23,953 nt of DNA, from the IMG/VR virus record IMGVR_UViG_3300006810_000381, positions 1 through 23,953 of that record. One strand, 5' to 3'. The DNA is from a virus. Each line of letters begins with the position of its first letter. The stretch's first letter is position 1. The notes beneath the pieces were generated by a model, which did not search any database, was not told where the DNA came from, and saw only the letters and a program-made list of their open reading frames with translations. This document shows positions 3,721 through 14,948 of this stretch, piece by piece. Made by a program: the position numbers and the translations under genes.

Positions 3721-5007
3721 ATGAACATCGAGATTCCGTATTCACCTAGACCACTCCAGGCAAAGCTTCATAACGAGCTAACAACTAACCGCTGGGGAGT
3801 TGTGGTGTGCCACAGACGATTTGGCAAGACTGTGATGGCTATAAACCATTTACTGAGGGATGCTATACTTAATGATAAAACGAATCCCAGGTACGCTTAT
3901 ATAGCGCCTACTTATAGGCAAGCGAAAGCTGTGGCATGGGATTATCTAAAGCAGTTTGCTGGTAAAGTTCCTATGGTTAGGTTTCATGAGACTGAGCTTA
4001 GGTGTGATCTTCCTAATGGATCGAGAATACAGCTGCTAGGTGCTGAGAATTATGATAGTTTACGAGGTATATATCTTGATGGAGCTGTCCTAGATGAGAT
4101 GGCTGATATGCCAGAAAGTTTATTTCCAGAAGTATTAAGGCCAGCTTTATCGGATAGGAAGGGATGGGCGTTCTTTATTGGAACACCTAGAGGTCACAAT
4201 GCTTTTTTTGATTTATATGAAGCAGCGCAGAGTAATAAGGATTGGTTTACACAAGTTTATAAGGCTAGTGAAACTGATATAGTTGATGCAGAAGAATTAG
4301 AAGCTGCCAGGTTGATGATGACTGAGGACCAGTTTGAGCAGGAGTTTGAATGTTCCTGGGTTGCTAATGTACCAGGAGCTATTTTTGGAAAAGAACTGCA
4401 AGTTGCCCAGGAAAGTGGGCGCATAGGAAATGTTCCCTATGACCAGGCGCACAAAGTAGATACCTGGTGGGATCTTGGTATAGGTGATAGCACCGCTATT
4501 TGGTTTACACAGAGTGTTGGTAGAGCCATCCATGTTATAGATTTTTATGAAGCCAGGAATGAAGGGTTACCGCACTATGCGAAAATACTTACAGGTAAAG
4601 GCTATTTTTATGGAAGCCACAATGCGCCGCATGATATTGAGGTTAGAGAACTTGGCTCTGGCAAGAGCCGCCGTGAGATCTCATACGATTTGGGAATTAA
4701 TTTTAGGGTTGTACCAAAGCTGCCAGTTGAAGATGGCATACACGCTGCGCAACTTATTCTCAGCCGTTGTTGGTTTGACCAGGTAAATTGTAAGGCTGGA
4801 TTAGAAGCATTAAGGCAGTATCACCGAGCTTATAATGAAAGATTAAGGACATTTAGGAATAGTCCAGTACATGATTGGGCCAGCCATGCGGCTGATGCCT
4901 GGAGATATTTTGCTGTGGGTGTAAGGGAAAACCGAGGGTTTGAACGGCCACCACAAGCGATTGCAGATAGTAGTTATAATCCATTTAATAGTATAGGAGC
5001 AATGTAA
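3721..5007 (+). CDS. terL: terminase large subunit (ATPase/nuclease)
   Basis: The 428-residue packaging motor docks on the portal, translocates DNA with its N-terminal ATPase and cuts it with its C-terminal RNase H-like nuclease. The ATPase shows a Walker A variant CHRRFGKT (residues 30-37), Walker B AVLDE (122-126) and the coupling motif IGTPRG (153-158). The nuclease shows its first acidic strand at TWWDLGIGDSTAIW (248-261, D251), a second site around APHD (302-305) and a final acidic motif DWASHAADAWRYFA (385-398). The length is usual for the compact large subunits of Sf6/HK97-like podoviruses. Start ATG 3721 has AGGAG at 3704-3708, a rather long spacing of 12 bases. Confidence 0.95.
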   Translation: MNIEIPYSPRPLQAKLHNELTTNRWGVVVCHRRFGKTVMAINHLLRDAILNDKTNPRYAYIAPTYRQAKAVAWDYLKQFAGKVPMVRFHETELRCDLPNGSRIQLLGAENYDSLRGIYLDGAVLDEMADMPESLFPEVLRPALSDRKGWAFFIGTPRGHNAFFDLYEAAQSNKDWFTQVYKASETDIVDAEELEAARLMMTEDQFEQEFECSWVANVPGAIFGKELQVAQESGRIGNVPYDQAHKVDTWWDLGIGDSTAIWFTQSVGRAIHVIDFYEARNEGLPHYAKILTGKGYFYGSHNAPHDIEVRELGSGKSRREISYDLGINFRVVPKLPVEDGIHAAQLILSRCWFDQVNCKAGLEALRQYHRAYNERLRTFRNSPVHDWASHAADAWRYFAVGVRENRGFERPPQAIADSSYNPFNSIGAM

Positions 5008-5008
5008 T

Positions 5009-5239
5009 ATGGGCGGATTATTTGGCGGCAGTAAGCCAGCACCACCACCTCCACCACCACCACCTCCAGCGCAAGCTGTACCAGCACCGACTAAGAGGAG
5101 TGAGGTAGAGGATAAAATGAAAGATCCTAAAAGAGTGTCTAGGAAAAAAACCATAATGACTTCACCTCAAGGCGTATTGGGTGAAGAAGATGGAGTGGCG
5201 TACAAGACGTTATTAGGTGGTACAACTAAGAAGTCCTAG
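5009..5239 (+). CDS. small proline-run virion-associated protein with TI(M)TS...KTLLG tail
   Basis: The gene encodes 76 residues. The order is MGGLFGG opening, nine consecutive prolines (residues 12-20), a basic middle (KMKDPKRVSRKK) and the C-terminal motif TIMTSPQGVLG...YKTLLGG. From memory, small phage proteins with a Gly-rich start, Pro-rich stretch and a TILTS/KTLLG tail are common near terminase and portal genes, but their function is unknown. The poly-Pro run should stall ribosomes and need EF-P. The gene starts one base after terL ends and overlaps the acyltransferase gene by 23 bases. Its tail motif recurs in the Asp-rich protein two genes on. Confidence 0.75.
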   Translation: MGGLFGGSKPAPPPPPPPPPAQAVPAPTKRSEVEDKMKDPKRVSRKKTIMTSPQGVLGEEDGVAYKTLLGGTTKKS

Positions 5240-5666
5240 CTTTGGTGAGGTTGTTGAGCTTCTAAGGCATAGTCGGCTGCACAGATCTGTTAGGTTAAGA
5301 AAACTTATAGATAATTTTGAAACACCATTAACGATTAATCAGTATAGGTACTGGCGAAATAAACATGAAAAGCTTGTTGGGTTTTGTGCTTATGCTTTGG
5401 TTTCTGACGAAGTGTTAACAAAATTAAGGCATGGCGCATCAATGGAAAAAGATTGGTGGCAATCTGGCAATCATTTATGGCTGGCTGAGTTTGTTGCTCC
5501 CTTTGGTCATGTATCATTTATTGTAAAAGATACAGTCCGCTATTTTAACAAGGAACATAAAATTGAAACTGGATATTGGTATAGGCCTTCTAAAAGGAAA
5601 AGAGGACATATTGGGCGAGATCATGCCCTTGAACAATCCGACCTTATGTTTTATGGGTGGAGATGA
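5217..5666 (+). CDS. HlyC-family (toxin-activating type) lysine acyltransferase
   Basis: The gene encodes 149 residues from GTG 5217. HlyC-type enzymes move a fatty acyl group from acyl-ACP to internal lysines of RTX toxins in the cytoplasm. Matching features in order are LHRSVRLRKL with the catalytic-type His (H22), INQYRYWRNKHEKLVGFCAY (40-59), ALVSDEV (60-66), DWWQSGNHLWLAEFVAPFG (79-97) and a Lys/Arg-rich C-terminus. In HlyC the segment before APFG carries a conserved Asp (WFIDWIAPFG); here it is Glu91 (WLAEFVAPFG), a conservative change at a catalytic position. No RTX toxin is present in the window, and the gene is wedged between two virion-like proteins sharing a C-terminal motif. The substrate is therefore unknown and may be a phage protein. 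Confidence 0.85.
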   Translation: MVQLRSPSFGEVVELLRHSRLHRSVRLRKLIDNFETPLTINQYRYWRNKHEKLVGFCAYALVSDEVLTKLRHGASMEKDWWQSGNHLWLAEFVAPFGHVSFIVKDTVRYFNKEHKIETGYWYRPSKRKRGHIGRDHALEQSDLMFYGWR

Positions 5667-6480
5667 TGGCGGCGGCGGCGGCGGCGGTGGCGGCGGTGAT
5701 GACGATTACGATCCACCAGAAGAAGATCCAGGCTACGATCCAGATCCACCAAGCAGTCCAGATCCAAGTCCAGGCCCAGGTGATGATAATGATGATGATG
5801 ACGATAGTTATCAAGATAATCCAGCACCAGATGATCCGCCAGATGATTTTTATGAAGATGGTCCAGCACCACCAGATGATGATTCAGAAGATATATCAGA
5901 TGATGCACCAGAACCAGGTGATCCTGGCGGCGGTGGTGGTGGATCAGATGTTGGAAGTCCAGATACTGGGCAACCGGGATCAGACACACCAGACGATGGA
6001 ACTGACCAAGATGAAGGCATAGGTGAAGATGAATCTATAGTTGGTGATGATCCAGCTACAGAACCAGATGAGCCAGATGGCGGTGTTGATATAGACGATG
6101 ATCCAGTGCCAGATGATCCAGGTGATGGCGGCGATCCTAACGCTGGCGATGGCGGAATGGATATCGGTGGCGAGCCAGGTGGTGATCCTGGTGGCGGTGG
6201 CGGCGGTATGGATATCGGCACAACACCAGATGATAATGATGGTGATGATAATTTAGGTGGTAATGACGATAATGTTTACGATCCACCAGGCGATACTGTC
6301 ACAGATCCGCCAGCAGACAATACTACTGGATCTGCTAATCCTAGGGATGTTGTTAGAGCTGGTGATGAGGAAGAAGAAGAAGAGCGTAAGCGTGGTCGAT
6401 CAAAAGGCACAATATTAACTTCAGCTCAAGGTATTGTAGGCGGTGCGCCTATCCGCAGAAAAACTTTATTAGGATTATAA
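5653..6480 (+). CDS. extremely acidic Asp/Pro/Gly-rich protein with KTLLG tail
   Basis: From ATG 5653 the protein has 275 residues and begins MGGDDGGGGGGGGGGDDDYD. In-frame starts further upstream exist (ATG 5623; TTG 5563 with an AGGA), but that extension lies in another frame of the conserved acyltransferase, so I prefer 5653 with moderate confidence. Residues 1-250 are low-complexity Asp, Pro and Gly with no hydrophobic core, hence disordered and highly negative. The end is basic (RKRGRSKGTILTSAQGIVGG then KTLLGL) and matches the tail of the 76-residue protein. Local base composition is richer in G+C because of Gly/Pro/Asp codons. A flexible virion component or DNA-like polyanion is possible; function unknown. 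Confidence 0.7.
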   Translation: MGGDDGGGGGGGGGGDDDYDPPEEDPGYDPDPPSSPDPSPGPGDDNDDDDDSYQDNPAPDDPPDDFYEDGPAPPDDDSEDISDDAPEPGDPGGGGGGSDVGSPDTGQPGSDTPDDGTDQDEGIGEDESIVGDDPATEPDEPDGGVDIDDDPVPDDPGDGGDPNAGDGGMDIGGEPGGDPGGGGGGMDIGTTPDDNDGDDNLGGNDDNVYDPPGDTVTDPPADNTTGSANPRDVVRAGDEEEEEERKRGRSKGTILTSAQGIVGGAPIRRKTLLGL

Positions 6481-8106
6481 ATGGCTTCAGATGATTTAGC
6501 ACGATTACTCAATGAACGATTTGGCAGTCTAGCTGCGCAAAGAGTTACTTGGGAATCCCACTGGCAAGAAATAGCAGACTTTGTTGTTCCAAGAAAAGCA
6601 GATATTAATAAGGTTAGATCTCCTGGTGACAAAAGATCTGAACTTATATTTGATGGTACAGCAATTCATGCAGCAGAACTTATGTCTGCTTCATTACATG
6701 GGATGCTTACTAATCCTAGCACTAAATGGTTTAGTCTTAGATTTGGTGATTTAATATTAGATGGTAATGACGAAGCTAAAGAATGGCTGGAAAGTGTCGA
6801 AGATGTTATGTATCAAGAGTTTGCCAGCTCTAATTTTCAAGAACAAATACACGAACTGTACCATGATCTAATTACTTTTGGTACTGGCATCATGTTTGTT
6901 GAGGGTGATGACGAGCCTACACCAAGCTCATTAAGATTTAGCACCAGGCATATTGGTGAATGTTATGTTTCAGAAAATGAATATGGCCGTGTTGATACAG
7001 TATTTCGAAAATTTAAAATGCCTATGCGAGCTGCTATTAATCGTTTTAGTGCTGAACTTGTACCACAAAGAGTTGTTAAACAAAGCGAGCAAGATCCTTA
7101 TTCTTTGATTGAATTAGTCCATGCAGTTTATCCGAGGGATGATATAGACGTTACTAGGTTGGATTCTGTAAACAAACCATTTGCTTCTGTTTATTACGAT
7201 GCTGAAGAAAAAAAAGTTTTATCAGAAAGCGGTTTTGATGAGTTTCCATATCTTGCGCCAAGATATTTAAAAGCTAGTTATGAAATTGGTTATGGTCGAT
7301 CCCCAGCCATGACCGCTTTAGCAGACATAAAAATGCTTAATAAAATGTCTGAAGTAACAATTAGGGCCGCCCAAAAACAAGTTGATCCTCCACTTCTTGT
7401 TCCAGATGATGGTTTTATACTCCCTATAAGAACTGTACCTGGCGGCCTTAATTTTTATAGATCTGGATCAAGGGATAGAATAGAGCCGCTAAACATAGGC
7501 GCAAATAATCCATTAGGTTTAAACATGGAAGAACAACGTAGAAAAGCTATCCAATCAGCTTTCTACGTTGACCAGTTAATCTTGGGCCAAGGGCCACAGA
7601 TGACAGCAACAGAAGTTGTCCAGCGTACTGAAGAAAAGATGAGATTACTTGGGCCAGTATTAGGAAGATTGCAAGCTGAATTACTACAGCCACTTATAAC
7701 TCGAACTTATAATATTTTAGCAAGAAAACAATTATTTAGGACTGCGCCAGAGTTTATACAAGATAATGATATTAATATTGAATATGTAAGTCCATTAGCC
7801 AAAGCACAGCGCATGGGCGATGTACAATCTGCAATAAGATTGTTTGAGTTATTAGGTCCTATTATGCAAATCGACAGAGGTATCATGGATTTTGTTGATA
7901 GTGATGGATTAACTAAACATATGATACGAGCTTTATCAGTGCCAGCAACAGCTGTTAGAGGTGATGAAGAAGTTGCAGCCATTCGTGAACAACGAGCTGA
8001 AAGACAAGCGCAGCAAAGAGAATTACAACAAGCTCAACAAATAGCAGAAGCAGCTGGTAATGCAGCTCCAGCGCTTAAAGCGGCTCAAGGTTTAGGTGTT
8101 GTTTAA
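6481..8106 (+). CDS. portal protein (head-to-tail connector, T7 gp8-like family)
   Basis: The gene encodes 541 residues, the normal size for podovirus connectors. The protein forms the dodecameric ring through which DNA is packaged and ejected. Diagnostic stretches are LNERFGSLAAQRVTWESHWQ near the start, TAIHAAELMSASLHGMLTNP (about residues 60-80), a WFSLRF segment, FGTGIMFVEGDD, and MTATEVVQRTEEKMRLLGPV (about 375-394) before a Gln/Ala-rich C-terminal helix (REQRAERQAQQRELQQAQQI). These match the head-tail connector family. It starts immediately after the previous stop (TAA ATG), with AGGAT just upstream. Its TAATG end couples it to the next gene. Confidence 0.93.
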   Translation: MASDDLARLLNERFGSLAAQRVTWESHWQEIADFVVPRKADINKVRSPGDKRSELIFDGTAIHAAELMSASLHGMLTNPSTKWFSLRFGDLILDGNDEAKEWLESVEDVMYQEFASSNFQEQIHELYHDLITFGTGIMFVEGDDEPTPSSLRFSTRHIGECYVSENEYGRVDTVFRKFKMPMRAAINRFSAELVPQRVVKQSEQDPYSLIELVHAVYPRDDIDVTRLDSVNKPFASVYYDAEEKKVLSESGFDEFPYLAPRYLKASYEIGYGRSPAMTALADIKMLNKMSEVTIRAAQKQVDPPLLVPDDGFILPIRTVPGGLNFYRSGSRDRIEPLNIGANNPLGLNMEEQRRKAIQSAFYVDQLILGQGPQMTATEVVQRTEEKMRLLGPVLGRLQAELLQPLITRTYNILARKQLFRTAPEFIQDNDINIEYVSPLAKAQRMGDVQSAIRLFELLGPIMQIDRGIMDFVDSDGLTKHMIRALSVPATAVRGDEEVAAIREQRAERQAQQRELQQAQQIAEAAGNAAPALKAAQGLGVV

Positions 8107-11411: not shown

Positions 11412-14005
11412 TGGCCAAGGCTTCACCAACCTTTAATAACTTTACAGCTGGTGAGCTATCGCCAAGGCTAGATGGTCGCACTGATATAAGTAAGTATTTT
11501 AATGGTTCTAAAACCATGCAAAATTTTACAGTGCATCCTCATGGTGGTGCAAGCAGAAGGCCAGGCACAATTTATGTAAATACTGTAAAAGCCAGTGCTA
11601 ATGCAACAAGATTGATACCTTTTGAGTTTAATGTTGAACAAGCTTACATATTAGAATTTGGCAATTTATATTTTAGAATACACAAAGATGGTGGCACTGT
11701 AACAAGTGGCGGATCAGCTGTTGAAGTAGCAACTGTTTACACTTCAGCTGAAGTCGCACAAATAAAGTTTACACAAAGCGCAGATGTTATGTACTTAGTG
11801 CATCCATCACATCCAGTTTATAAGATAACGAGGACAAGCCACACAGCATGGACATTCACCGCTGTCGATTTTAGGCGTGGTCCTATGCAAGATCCTAATA
11901 CAACAGCAACAACATTAACGGCTAATGGTAGAACTGGAAGTGTAACAATAACAGCTAGTGCTGATTTATTTGCTTCAACAGATGTTGGCAGGTTAGTTAA
12001 GCTGCATGATGGTTTTGCAAAGATAACAGCATTTACTAATGCAACGACTGTAACTGCGACTGTGCAAGAAAATACAGCTGGTAGAACTGAATTGATGCCA
12101 AGTATGACGGCAAGCACTTTAAGTTTTGCTGAAGGAGATCCAAGCGCTACTGGACTAGAGCATAATGATAGAATAGTTGATAGTGCTGCAAACTTTGTAA
12201 AAGAAGGTTTTAAAGTAGGGCAAAAGGTTGTTATTACTGGCGCTACAGAAACTGCTAACAATAATAGTTCTGCATTACTTGTCCAGGTAACAGACGATAC
12301 AATGTTATTTGCACCTTCAGTAGATGTTGTTGATGAAGCTGCAAGCGCATCTATAACTGTTGCTGGATTGTTAGAAGCAGACGATGATTTTAGTTTAGGA
12401 GCTTTTTCTACAACAACTGGTTTTCCAGCGTGTGTTAGTTTTTATGAAGAACGTCTGGTGTTTGCTGGAACAACAACACAACCTCAAACAGTGTTTTTTT
12501 CTGTGGCTGGTGACTTTGAAGATTTTGCAGATGGCACAAATGCTGCGGATGCTTTGAGTTATACGATTGGATCTAGTCAAGTAAACGTCATAAGATACCT
12601 GGCATCATCCAGGGTTTTGATTGTTGGTACTAGTGGTGGTGAATTTGCTGTGTCTGCTAGTGGATCTGCCGAGCCACTAAGTCCGACAAATGCACAAATA
12701 AAACGACAAGCAAGTTATGGAACAGCAGATATACAGCCTATAAATGTAGGGCCAGTAACATTGTTCGTTCAGCGAGCTTTGAGAAAATTACGAGAATTAG
12801 TATTTAACTTTGATACTGATAGTTATAATGCACCAGATTTAACAATACTTGCAGAGCATATTACTGAAACTGGTATTGTCGAAATGGCTTGGCAACAAGA
12901 ACCAGATAATGTGATTTGGTGTGTACTAACAAATGGCTTTCTTGTCGGTATGACATATAGACGAGAAGAACAAGTCGTTGCTTGGCATGAACATATTTTA
13001 GGCGGTAGGTTTGGTGATGCAACAATAACTGTGTCTGATTATGCAAATATAGCTGTAGGTACAACAATTAAGATAACTAAGACAAATGGAGAAACAATTA
13101 CATTTGTAAGTGAAGCTGCTGGTTCTTCTGATCCAGCTGATACAACATTTGGTTTTAGACCGAATACAAATAACAACACAACAGCTGATAATATATTTAC
13201 CAGAATAAATGCGCACTCAGATTTTACAGTGGCTAATCCTTCAGCAGCTATTGTTACCATTACAGAAACAGATCCAGAAACAACTGGGTATACAACAATA
13301 GAAACTAGCGATCCGACCAGGCTTACAACAACAAACCAAGGTAATGCGGTTGTAGAATCCATTGCTACAATACCTGGCACAGCTGATGAAGATGATCTTT
13401 ATATGATTGTTAAGAGAACTGTAAATGGATCAACTGTAAGGTATATAGAATATTTAAGTAATTATGAGTTTGGTACAGATGTTAAAGATGCTTACTTTGT
13501 AGATTGCGGTCTTACATATGATAGCACAGCAGCAACATCTATATCTGGTCTTACACATTTAGAAGGTGAAAAGATTGTTGTTTTGGGTGATGGTGCAACA
13601 CATCCAGACAGGACTGTATCGTCTGGTGGTATTACACTGGCTAGATCAGTGCAAAAAGCACATATAGGATTTAATTATAAATCAACATTGCAAACTATGA
13701 GAATAGATGCTGGCGGAACAGAAGGCACATCACAAGGCAAGAACAAAAGAATAAATAATATTACATTAAGATTATATAGATCAGTAGGTGTTAAAGTAGG
13801 TAGCTCAGAAGCAGAACTGGATCTTATACCATTTAGATCTTCAGCGGATGATATGTCGGAAGCTCTAGGAATGTTTACTGGAGATAAGGAAGTCGAGTTT
13901 AGAGGTGGTTATGATAATGATGGTTTTGTTTTTGTAAGGCAAGATCAACCATTGCCATTAACTGTATTAGCAATATTCCCAAGGCTGCAAACATTCGATC
14001 AATGA
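11411..14005 (+). CDS. tail nozzle protein (tail tubular protein B-like) with inserted beta domains
   Basis: The gene encodes 864 residues. The N-terminus (FNNFTAGELSPRLDGRTDIS, then MQNFTVHPHGGASRRPGTIY) is a hallmark of podovirus nozzle/stabilisation proteins that form the tube tip beneath the adaptor. The core includes FYEERLVFAGTTTQPQTVFF (344-363), an RALRKLREL segment and EMAWQQEPDNVIWCVLTNGF. Several beta-rich insertions interrupt it. Residues ~225-322 carry a DRIVDSAANFVKEGFKVGQK unit. Residues ~536-644 split the usual junction between WHEHILGG and NAVVESIATIPG. These insertions probably stand out on the surface of the tail. It overlaps the next gene by 4 bases. Confidence 0.88.
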   Translation: MAKASPTFNNFTAGELSPRLDGRTDISKYFNGSKTMQNFTVHPHGGASRRPGTIYVNTVKASANATRLIPFEFNVEQAYILEFGNLYFRIHKDGGTVTSGGSAVEVATVYTSAEVAQIKFTQSADVMYLVHPSHPVYKITRTSHTAWTFTAVDFRRGPMQDPNTTATTLTANGRTGSVTITASADLFASTDVGRLVKLHDGFAKITAFTNATTVTATVQENTAGRTELMPSMTASTLSFAEGDPSATGLEHNDRIVDSAANFVKEGFKVGQKVVITGATETANNNSSALLVQVTDDTMLFAPSVDVVDEAASASITVAGLLEADDDFSLGAFSTTTGFPACVSFYEERLVFAGTTTQPQTVFFSVAGDFEDFADGTNAADALSYTIGSSQVNVIRYLASSRVLIVGTSGGEFAVSASGSAEPLSPTNAQIKRQASYGTADIQPINVGPVTLFVQRALRKLRELVFNFDTDSYNAPDLTILAEHITETGIVEMAWQQEPDNVIWCVLTNGFLVGMTYRREEQVVAWHEHILGGRFGDATITVSDYANIAVGTTIKITKTNGETITFVSEAAGSSDPADTTFGFRPNTNNNTTADNIFTRINAHSDFTVANPSAAIVTITETDPETTGYTTIETSDPTRLTTTNQGNAVVESIATIPGTADEDDLYMIVKRTVNGSTVRYIEYLSNYEFGTDVKDAYFVDCGLTYDSTAATSISGLTHLEGEKIVVLGDGATHPDRTVSSGGITLARSVQKAHIGFNYKSTLQTMRIDAGGTEGTSQGKNKRINNITLRLYRSVGVKVGSSEAELDLIPFRSSADDMSEALGMFTGDKEVEFRGGYDNDGFVFVRQDQPLPLTVLAIFPRLQTFDQ

Positions 14006-14442
14006 TAATGGTAGATTATAAGCCAGAACATATTGAGTCTATCCTAGATGGCGATATGAGTAAAATGGCTAGAAAATCATTTGGTATGGCTGAAGATATA
14101 GCTCATGGATTAGTTGCACCTGGACTAGCTTTTTCTGGTTTGATTGATGGTTATGTCATAGCAAGCGCTGGCATAAAACCACTTTGGAATGGAGTTGGTG
14201 AAGGCTGGATAGTTGCATCAGATAAAATGCCAAATAAAAAACTTAGTGTCATTAAACTCATTAAAGATAATTTTGATAAAATGATTCACGATCATAATTT
14301 TGTAAGAGTTCAAGCTGGTGTTAGATCTGATTGGCCAGAAGCAAAAAGATTTGCTGAATTTCTAGGTTTTGAGCATGAAGGCATTATGCGCAAATATGGT
14401 CCAGACGGACAAGATTATTATAGAATGGCGAGGGTATTTTAA
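14002..14442 (+). CDS. GNAT-like protein, possible internal virion protein A
   Basis: The gene encodes 146 residues. The C-terminal half resembles GNAT acetyltransferases: RVQAGVRSDWPEAKRFAEFL then GFEHEGIMRKYGPDGQDYYR (residues ~102-141), the end being the classical motif B/tail. The acetyl-CoA binding loop expected before it (R/QxxGxG/A) is not evident; the corresponding segment reads GWIVASDKMPNKKLSVIKLI, so catalysis is doubtful. T7 gp13, at the equivalent place, is as I recall also assigned to this fold. The start overlaps the nozzle stop (ATGA); an alternative ATG lies two codons on. It may be an assembly factor for the ejection proteins. Confidence 0.75.
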   Translation: MIMVDYKPEHIESILDGDMSKMARKSFGMAEDIAHGLVAPGLAFSGLIDGYVIASAGIKPLWNGVGEGWIVASDKMPNKKLSVIKLIKDNFDKMIHDHNFVRVQAGVRSDWPEAKRFAEFLGFEHEGIMRKYGPDGQDYYRMARVF

Positions 14443-14948
14443 TGGGAGCGCAAGCAGCTATAGCAAGTGCAGTATTTAGTGCAGCTGGATCTATCCAAGC
14501 TGGTAGAGATCAAAAAAGAGCTTATAATTATAATGCCCAGGTAAATGAACGTAATGCTCAAGTTGCTGAGCAAGATGCAGAACAACTCGTTCTTATGGAA
14601 GAAGTCGAAATTGGTAGATTTAGGCGTGAGTTTGACAATCTACAAGCAGCAACATCTCAGTCATTTAGATTTAATGGATGGATGGCTGACACTGGAACAC
14701 CACTTAAAGTTGCCTTGGCAAACGCCCAAGAAGCAGATGAAGAAGTGGCTATCAGACGATATAATGCAAAAGTAGGTAAAGCAGAGCTTAAAGAAAAAGG
14801 CACTCAAGAACGTATGTCTGCAAATTTAAATAGGATGTACGGAAGAGCTGCTATGAGAGCATCATATTTTAAAGCTGGTAGTAGTTTATTATCCGGCGCT
14901 TCTTCTTACTCACAAATCAATGCACGATATGGAAAGTCAACTGTATGA
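14442..14948 (+). CDS. internal virion protein B-like ejection protein (gp14-like)
   Basis: The gene encodes 168 residues. A hydrophobic, small-residue N-terminus (AAIASAVFSAAGSIQAG) is followed by helical, Asn/Gln/Glu-rich sequence (NYNAQVNERNAQVAEQDAEQ), then FRREFDNLQAATSQSF...GTPLKVALANAQEADEEV and MYGRAAMRASYFKAGSSLLS. This is the typical layout of podovirus internal virion protein B (T7 gp14-like), which enters the cell first and forms the outer-membrane part of the ejection channel. It is coupled to both neighbours (TAATG at the start, ATGA at the end). Family-level confidence is good; the membrane role is inferred from T7. Confidence 0.8.
   Translation: MGAQAAIASAVFSAAGSIQAGRDQKRAYNYNAQVNERNAQVAEQDAEQLVLMEEVEIGRFRREFDNLQAATSQSFRFNGWMADTGTPLKVALANAQEADEEVAIRRYNAKVGKAELKEKGTQERMSANLNRMYGRAAMRASYFKAGSSLLSGASSYSQINARYGKSTV

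What the first reader, a model, noticed from the sequence alone, without database searches (positions are those of the whole stretch)
5217..5666. HlyC-type lysine acyltransferase inside a structural operon, with Glu in place of the catalytic Asp
The protein shows the HlyC series (LHR His, QYR, DW.SG, APFG) but no RTX toxin is in the window. It lies between terminase and portal genes, wedged between two proteins sharing a C-terminal motif. The residue aligned with HlyC's conserved Asp before APFG is Glu91. Either the enzyme has a shifted mechanism or it is a retained acyl-ACP binder. A phage that lipidates its own virion or ejection proteins, or a host protein, would be a new use of this family.
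Basis: partly seen in the sequence, partly recalled or inferred. Interest (0 to 1): 0.7.

Follow-up and report, generated by a model that had tools for sequence, protein, structure and literature searches.

The report
Phage lipid-transfer enzyme beside tail proteins
A marine bacterial virus carries a relative of the bacterial enzyme that attaches fatty acids to toxins, placed among the genes for its own particle, which suggests (not yet tested) that some viruses may add fat to their own DNA-delivery parts to get through a bacterial membrane.

Summary
The ORF at 5217-5666 is a real, selected gene of the HlyC family (PF02794, 77 bits, cut-off 25; predicted fold closest to ApxC, Z 16.5). Ser19 and His22 are kept; Glu91 stands where characterised members have Asp. 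Glu is a clade trait, seen also in other phages and in 6 of 74 cellular relatives, so no shifted mechanism is needed. The gene overlaps two neighbours that share the phrog_831 domain, between terminase and portal. In related phages the same gap holds neither enzyme (43 of 70 intervals), or a GNAT-fold protein instead (9). IMG/VR contigs hold hundreds of HlyC relatives; a tree places them in several spots among cellular, often RTX-linked, enzymes. In five of seven gene arrangements the next gene starts Met-Gly, 94 of 96 loci. Best explanation: a captured acyltransferase that lipidates a DNA-delivery protein, as CdiC lipidates CdiA. Substrate and chemistry are inferred. Against: no Gly-Lys motif in either neighbour, no lysine that is specific to hlyC phages, lysine-poor partners in lineage D, His-less lineages, and Met-Gly starts in phages without hlyC. 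New variant of a known kind.

The parts
5217..5666 (+). HlyC-family (PF02794) acyltransferase-like gene, 149 aa; Ser19, His22, Glu91
5009..5239 (+). short Gly/Pro-rich phrog_831 protein, 76 aa, starts MGGLFGG; overlaps the hlyC start by 23 bases
   Evidence: phrog_831 E 1.1e-9 over residues 4-70; coordinates
5653..6480 (+). long Asp/Gly/Pro-rich protein, 275 aa from the ATG inside the hlyC end (MGGDDGG...), with phrog_831 C-terminal domain; all 3 lysines lie in that domain; best candidate substrate (inferred)
   Evidence: phrog_831 E 3e-7 over residues 257-304 of the longer TTG reading 5563-6480; start and lysines
3721..5007 (+). terminase large subunit (context)
   Evidence: PF03237 E 1.2e-13
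6481..8106 (+). portal / head-tail connector (context)
   Evidence: PF12236 E 4.1e-148

Best explanation
Shown: the gene is an HlyC-family member with the ApxC-like GNAT fold and a His/carboxylate pair at the active-site positions; it is under purifying selection; it is coupled by overlaps to two phrog_831 proteins encoded between terminase and portal; in related phages the same gap can hold a GNAT-fold protein instead. Inferred: it is a working acyltransferase, captured from an alphaproteobacterial RTX-type locus, that takes a fatty acid from host acyl-ACP and attaches it to a protein encoded next to it, most likely the long downstream one, whose position before the portal resembles that of T7 gp7.3, a tail-channel protein ejected early. 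The acyl chain would help the delivered protein enter or anchor in the envelope of the next cell, as the acyl chain put on CdiA by CdiC is proposed to insert into lipid A. The acceptor (lysine or N-terminal amine) is not determined. Glu91 would do the job of Asp as general base.
For: Family and fold; 56 of 56 dereplicated phage relatives match PF02794. Ser/His kept in 61 of 61 loci of lineages A, C, D, E with Asp or Glu in 61 of 61. Selection. Slot: of 70 complete terminase-portal intervals, 18 have HlyC (13 distinct contigs, 5 fetched twice), 9 a GNAT, 43 neither; GNAT identity by Pfam, over the cut-off in 2 of 4 tested, and by fold, Z 12.1. The same alternation at a second, unrelated place: between hub and J-like tail protein HlyC in HTVC112P/026P/111P, a GNAT in phage DSL-LC06; BPP-1 also has a GNAT between terminase and portal. 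Repeated capture: tree, (lineage D with a Rhodospirillales enzyme 98/92; starred branches force at least 2 changes of the cell label, the tree needs 4). Gene order enzyme-then-partner: in 5 of 7 arrangements the next gene starts Met-Gly, 94 of 96 loci, against 19 of 225 annotated genes in 15 phage stretches; Fisher on six cultured phages 5 of 6 against 4 of 113, p 4e-6. Precedent: CdiC (PMC8510554); hlyC directly before hlyA in the operon (PMC3034196). T7 gp6.7 and gp7.3 are ejected (PMC11784390).
Against: No acylation has been seen. Neither neighbour has a Gly-Lys motif. The three lysines of the long protein are invariant in lineage A, but the one before TLLG is also in relatives without HlyC (by eye), so it is not HlyC-specific. 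A similar acidic long protein occurs without HlyC (L207, L224). In lineage D the downstream protein has 0 to 5 lysines, none invariant, L033 none, and does not start Met-Gly (0 of 17). Lineages B, F, G (86 of 86 loci) lack the His and 4 lack both residues, yet keep the gene. Met-Gly starts also occur in the partner families of phages without hlyC (HTVC202P, HTVC010P, C72C1, T7 gp7.3). phrog_831 proteins and T7 gp6.7/gp7.3 share position, not a profile match.
Confidence: 0.45

Rival explanations
1. The protein is a non-catalytic (or no longer lipid-transferring) GNAT-fold assembly factor: a chaperone or scaffold that holds the disordered neighbour until it is packed into the particle, as suggested for T7 gp13, which Pfam calls a probable scaffold protein.
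For: Lineages B, F, G keep the gene at a fixed place without the His (86 of 86) and 4 of 43 in B without any carboxylate. Pfam names T7 gp13 'probable scaffold protein', and the window has a relative of it at 14002-14442 beside a gp14-like gene. The slot can be empty or filled by another GNAT-fold protein.
Against: In the window's own lineage Ser19, His22 and Glu91 are invariant in 16 of 16 loci, with R44, W81, G84, W88, P95, G97; a pure chaperone would not need this.
Confidence: 0.25
2. The enzyme works, but on a host protein, a host lipid or another phage protein (for example the portal), not on its neighbours.
For: Lineage G (HTVC103P, HTVC104P) has the gene in the early region by the single-strand binding protein, with no virion gene next to it. 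In lineage D the next protein is almost without lysine while the portal lies directly upstream.
Against: In A, B, C, E, F the next gene is fixed within each lineage and nearly always overlaps or abuts hlyC, across separate captures.
Confidence: 0.17
3. The acceptor is the N-terminal glycine of the partner, so that these phage enzymes work like N-myristoyltransferases rather than lysine acyltransferases.
For: Met-Gly start of the next gene in 11 of 13 A, 43 of 43 B, 14 of 14 C, 11 of 11 E, 15 of 15 F loci; partners with few or no HlyC-specific lysines; the His-less lineages are among those with perfect Met-Gly starts.
Against: L006 and L007 of the window's own lineage have no Met-Gly start; lineage D 0 of 17; Met-Gly occurs in sister phages without hlyC; a bacterial N-myristoyltransferase of this family is not known to me (recalled).
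Confidence: 0.1
4. A recently captured host gene without a role, on its way out.
For: It is absent from 52 of 70 intervals of related phages.
Against: dN/dS 0.10 to 0.31 in 8 pairs and full conservation of the active-site columns.
Confidence: 0.03

Closest known systems
ApxC / HlyC toxin-activating acyltransferases (PF02794; PDB 4whn)
   Same: Profile, fold (Z 16.5), Ser and His at the active-site spacing, carboxylate at the Asp place, gene directly upstream of a candidate partner
   Different: Glu instead of Asp; no RTX partner; lies in a phage structural operon; acyl transfer not shown
CdiC of class IV contact-dependent inhibition (PMC8510554, passages)
   Same: HlyC relative used on a non-RTX protein that meets a bacterial outer membrane; gene next to its substrate gene
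   Different: CdiC has His37/Asp107 and a mapped lysine; partner here is a small disordered phage protein
Annotated 'toxin-activating lysine-acyltransferase' genes of pelagiphages HTVC112P, 026P, 111P, 103P, 104P, 115P and Roseobacter phage CRP-235
   Same: PF02794 members in marine phages; CRP-235 has the His/Asp pair
   Different: The six pelagiphage proteins lack the His; other gene positions; no function stated in the records seen
T7 genes 6.7 - 7 - 7.3 before the portal gene 8
   Same: Small virion proteins around one ~130 aa protein upstream of the portal; gp6.7 and gp7.3 are ejected (PMC11784390)
   Different: No profile link of T7 gp7 to HlyC or to the slot GNAT; phrog_831 does not match gp6.7 or gp7.3

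Membership tests
PF02794 HlyC family | Profile match over the curated cut-off | tested here: met
   77 bits against 25; NCBIfam gave no match
PF02794 HlyC family | ApxC-like GNAT fold | tested here: met
   Foldseek E 2.8e-9, next 6.8e-3; Z 16.5, next 11.3; model pLDDT 83, pTM 0.76
PF02794 HlyC family | Active-site His with Ser three residues before, and a carboxylate before APFG | tested here: met
   Ser19, His22, Glu91; 16 of 16 loci of the lineage
Experimentally characterised toxin-activating acyltransferases (HlyC, ApxC, CyaC, CdiC) | The carboxylate is Asp | tested here: not met
   Glu91. Not taken as defining PF02794, since Glu occurs in 6 of 74 cellular relatives; it does bar filing this protein as a proven TAAT
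Experimentally characterised toxin-activating acyltransferases (HlyC, ApxC, CyaC, CdiC) | RTX (or CdiA-type) protein encoded next to it | tested here: not met
   No RTX array in six frames; neighbours are phrog_831 proteins. CdiA was not searched for as such
Experimentally characterised toxin-activating acyltransferases (HlyC, ApxC, CyaC, CdiC) | Transfers fatty acid from acyl-ACP to a lysine | not testable with these tools
   Needs biochemistry
GNAT N-acetyltransferases (PF00583) | Profile match | tested here: inconclusive
   No PF00583 row for the window protein at E up to 1, although the fold is of that class
T7 gp7 family | Profile-profile similarity | tested here: inconclusive
   hhalign probability 0.9 and 0.5 percent; only weak fold rows, E about 0.1

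The most novel reading that the evidence does not exclude
Several lineages of marine phages have independently captured HlyC enzymes from their hosts' RTX loci and turned them into virion-protein acyltransferases that put a fatty acid on the exposed N-terminal glycine (after Met removal) of the tail-tip or ejected protein encoded by the very next gene; GNAT proteins in the same slots do a smaller acyl version of the same job. That would be a bacterial-virus counterpart of N-myristoylation.
Probability: 0.1. Interest if true: 0.9.

Novelty: new variant of a known kind. Interest (0 to 1): 0.6.

Why it matters
If phages lipidate their own DNA-delivery proteins, that would be a modification of tailed-phage particles that I know of no report of (searches in the open-access library gave none; subscription papers are not covered), and a new way to cross the outer membrane. 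It would also make testable what the many GNAT-like proteins beside phage ejection genes do. Even without lipidation, the survey shows that a family named for toxin activation is widespread in marine phage contigs, where the 'toxin-activating' label misleads.

Tried and rejected
Shifted mechanism because of Glu91: rejected; Glu is a clade trait and also cellular.

T7 gp7 as a homologue of the slot proteins: tried by profile comparison and not supported; A6 against the slot GNAT also gave nothing. Fold search against viral models gave T7-like 'host range protein' rows only at E about 0.1, and the 50 rows listed for the slot GNAT carried no such name.

One homologous partner for all lineages: the long proteins of relatives of the window and those of lineage E are linked (hhalign probability 95, P 2.8e-8), but lineage D is not (probability 11, and 0.1 against E); a shared motif that I saw by eye there is left as an impression.

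Obligate pairing of HlyC with the acidic long protein: rejected, since L207 and L224 have such a protein without HlyC.

Lysine acceptor fixed by conservation: three invariant lysines in lineage A, none in D, so no common site.

Literature: one search listed 20 of 402 papers, none on phage HlyC function by title; the CRP-235 and HTVC026P papers (PMC9038755, PMC10504331) hold no word beginning with 'acyltransferase' (passages); PMC7029224 has it in its reference list only.

Full report
What is there. The window is a virus record of 23,953 bases. The ORF 5217-5666 encodes 149 aa and matches Pfam HlyC with 77 bits against a cut-off of 25, PHROG family phrog_20210 of unknown function and ApxC in the PDB with E 7.3e-7. 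NCBIfam gave nothing. AlphaFold2 on 56 aligned relatives gave pLDDT 83 and pTM 0.76, with residues 138-149 unreliable. Foldseek puts ApxC first (E 2.8e-9; next 6.8e-3), and VIA-align gives Z 16.5, rmsd 2.9 over 128 residues, against 11.3 for the next entry. The gene is selected: dN/dS 0.10 to 0.31 in the 8 pairs that printed, of 9 asked for.

Surroundings. Upstream 5009-5239 and downstream 5653-6480 both carry a phrog_831 domain (E 1.1e-9 and 3e-7); the starts and stops overlap. Terminase lies before and the portal after. The downstream protein from ATG 5653 has 275 residues, 67 Asp, 61 Gly, 39 Pro and 3 Lys, the lysines all in the last 30 residues; in the 14 rows examined (one of them, L011, the window's own copy) these three are always present. 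There is no RTX array.

The slot. A scan with the portal returned 80 loci of at least 598. Among 70 complete terminase-portal intervals (65 contigs, since five were fetched twice; part of them fetched through HlyC itself), 18 hold HlyC (13 contigs), 9 hold another protein and 43 neither. The other protein is GNAT-like: PF00583 over its cut-off in L166 and L173, just under in L187 and under in L206; its model (pLDDT 91) has GNAT acetyltransferases at the top (Z 12.1). The short and long phrog_831-type proteins are kept without HlyC in the intervals I read. The cultured relatives HTVC010P, Lederberg and HTVC100P have the pair without HlyC. BPP-1 has a GNAT annotated and confirmed by Pfam between terminase and portal. 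T7 has 6.7, 7, 7.3, 7.7 before its portal gene 8; this is a likeness of order, since phrog_831 did not match T7 gp6.7 or gp7.3 and T7 gp7 has no profile link.

How common it is. In 50,697 phage records seven cultured phages have HlyC relatives that I confirmed by annotation and by sequence: six pelagiphages and CRP-235 (further rows were short matches to capsid and deaminase genes and were dropped). Five of the six distinct pelagiphage or CRP proteins were given to Pfam and one, and all six match PF02794; HTVC104P was not given, being near-identical to HTVC103P. In IMG/VR one scan found 51 loci and another 382, of which 80 were kept. All 148 loci then held gave an HlyC-profile match, and 56 of 56 dereplicated members match Pfam.

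Seven arrangements. Grouping by the next gene gives lineages A to G. A: the window type. B: between a hub-like tail protein and a J-like central tail fibre. C: CRP-235 type, before a protein of unknown function, an endolysin and a protein with DNA-ejection-type matches. D and E: directly after portals of two other families. F: HTVC115P type, before a Lys-rich protein with only a weak 'membrane protein' match. G: HTVC103P type, in the early region beside single-strand binding protein and primase. Only in B does a profile name the next gene a tail protein; in A, C, D, E, F its virion role is inferred from place.

Active site by lineage (147 loci, the copy L011 left out). A 16 of 16 Ser/His/Glu; E 11 of 11 Ser/His/Glu; D 19 of 19 Ser/His/Asp; C 15 of 15 Ser/His, 12 Asp and 3 Glu. 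B, F and G have no His (0 of 86); the carboxylate is kept in 82 of 86 and lost in 4 of B. Among 74 cellular relatives (one of the two search patterns allowed Asp or Glu at this place, the other did not cover it) 50 are His/Asp, 4 His/Glu, 2 have Glu with the His place not aligned, and 18 others. So Glu is ordinary variation, and His loss marks one large phage clade.

Origin. The tree of 98 rows (130 columns, many forks unresolved) joins A with E (99/79) near two alphaproteobacterial enzymes (L235, and L236 on a long branch), D with a Rhodospirillales enzyme (98/92), C with a Sulfitobacter enzyme (91/74, weak), and B, F, G in one clade (100/99). The loci L235, L236, L244 and L247 hold 33, 24, 30 and 17 RTX-type motifs. 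The cell label needs 4 changes; well-supported branches force at least 2. I read this as repeated capture from host RTX loci, with the direction inferred.

The Met-Gly pattern. In A, B, C, E and F the gene after hlyC has an ATG-Gly start near the hlyC end in 11 of 13, 43 of 43, 14 of 14, 11 of 11 and 15 of 15 loci; in D 0 of 17; in G 3 of 28, where the three are alternative upstream starts (141 of the 148 loci, the others lacking a called next gene or being the window's copy). The loci are redundant, so lineages count more than loci: 5 of 7. Background: 19 of 225 annotated genes in 15 phage stretches, p 8e-5 for 5 of 7 at that rate. In six cultured phages (HTVC104P left out as near-identical to 103P) it is 5 of 6 against 4 of 113, p 4e-6, three of the six being one lineage. 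The control weakens the link to hlyC itself: the same partner families start Met-Gly in phages without hlyC (HTVC202P, HTVC010P, Lederberg, HTVC100P, C72C1) and in T7 gp7.3, though not in DSL-LC06 or CRP-821. In HTVC103P the F-type partner exists away from hlyC and also starts Met-Gly. So hlyC seems to be recruited beside a class of Met-Gly proteins rather than to cause the start.

Mechanism. Passages of PMC8510554 state that TAAT catalysis rests on a His/Asp pair, in one model with Asp as base and His protonating the ACP thiolate, and that CdiC, a HlyC relative, lipidates a lysine of CdiA so that the chain may insert into lipid A. Passages of PMC3034196 give acyl-ACP as donor, Ser20 and His23 of HlyC as catalytic candidates and the order hlyC before hlyA; Ser19/His22 here have the same spacing. 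Passages of PMC11784390 say T7 gp7.3 sits in the tail channel and is thought to be ejected first, and gp6.7 is a core protein. From these I infer lipidation of an adjacent DNA-delivery protein. Every step after family, fold, conservation and gene order is inference.

Against it, in one place: no Gly-Lys motif in either neighbour; no HlyC-specific lysine; lineage D partners nearly without lysine; His-less and dyad-less lineages kept in place; hlyC absent from 52 of 70 intervals of relatives; L006 and L007 of the window's lineage without the Met-Gly start.

Verdict. It is a new variant of a known kind: an HlyC-family enzyme in phage structural operons, with CdiC as the nearest precedent. The mechanism is testable with cultured phages.

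Noticed in passing
window 14002-14442 and 14442-14948: A T7 gp13-like protein (phrog_308 E 6.7e-12, phrog_4177 E 7.6e-28; a GNAT profile below its cut-off) directly before a gp14-like internal virion protein (phrog_418 E 9.7e-11): a second GNAT-like gene beside an ejection gene in the same phage.
   Followed up: partly
window 5653-6480 and relatives: The long acidic Asp/Gly/Pro-rich protein varies from 263 to 375 residues in the lineage while its last 40 residues hardly change.
   Followed up: no
L314 2004-2489 (phage DSL-LC06): A GNAT (PF00583, 38 bits) sits between hub and J-like tail protein, where HTVC112P, 026P and 111P have HlyC.
   Followed up: partly
L012, L013 (HTVC103P, HTVC104P): hlyC lies in the early region, apart from the HTVC115P-type Lys-rich partner gene, which HTVC103P still has elsewhere.
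   Followed up: partly
lineage D loci, e.g. L032 7384-8412 and L033: Proteins of about 300 to 380 residues with 0 to 5 lysines and many arginines, directly after hlyC.
   Followed up: no
viral fold library: A podovirus protein labelled N-myristoyltransferase N-terminal domain (A0A8S5MC07) and T7-like host range proteins appear as weak fold matches (E 0.1 to 0.3) of the window protein.
   Followed up: no
L119, L131, L138, L144: Four lineage-B HlyC relatives have Phe at the carboxylate place and Tyr at the His place but keep the gene position.
   Followed up: no
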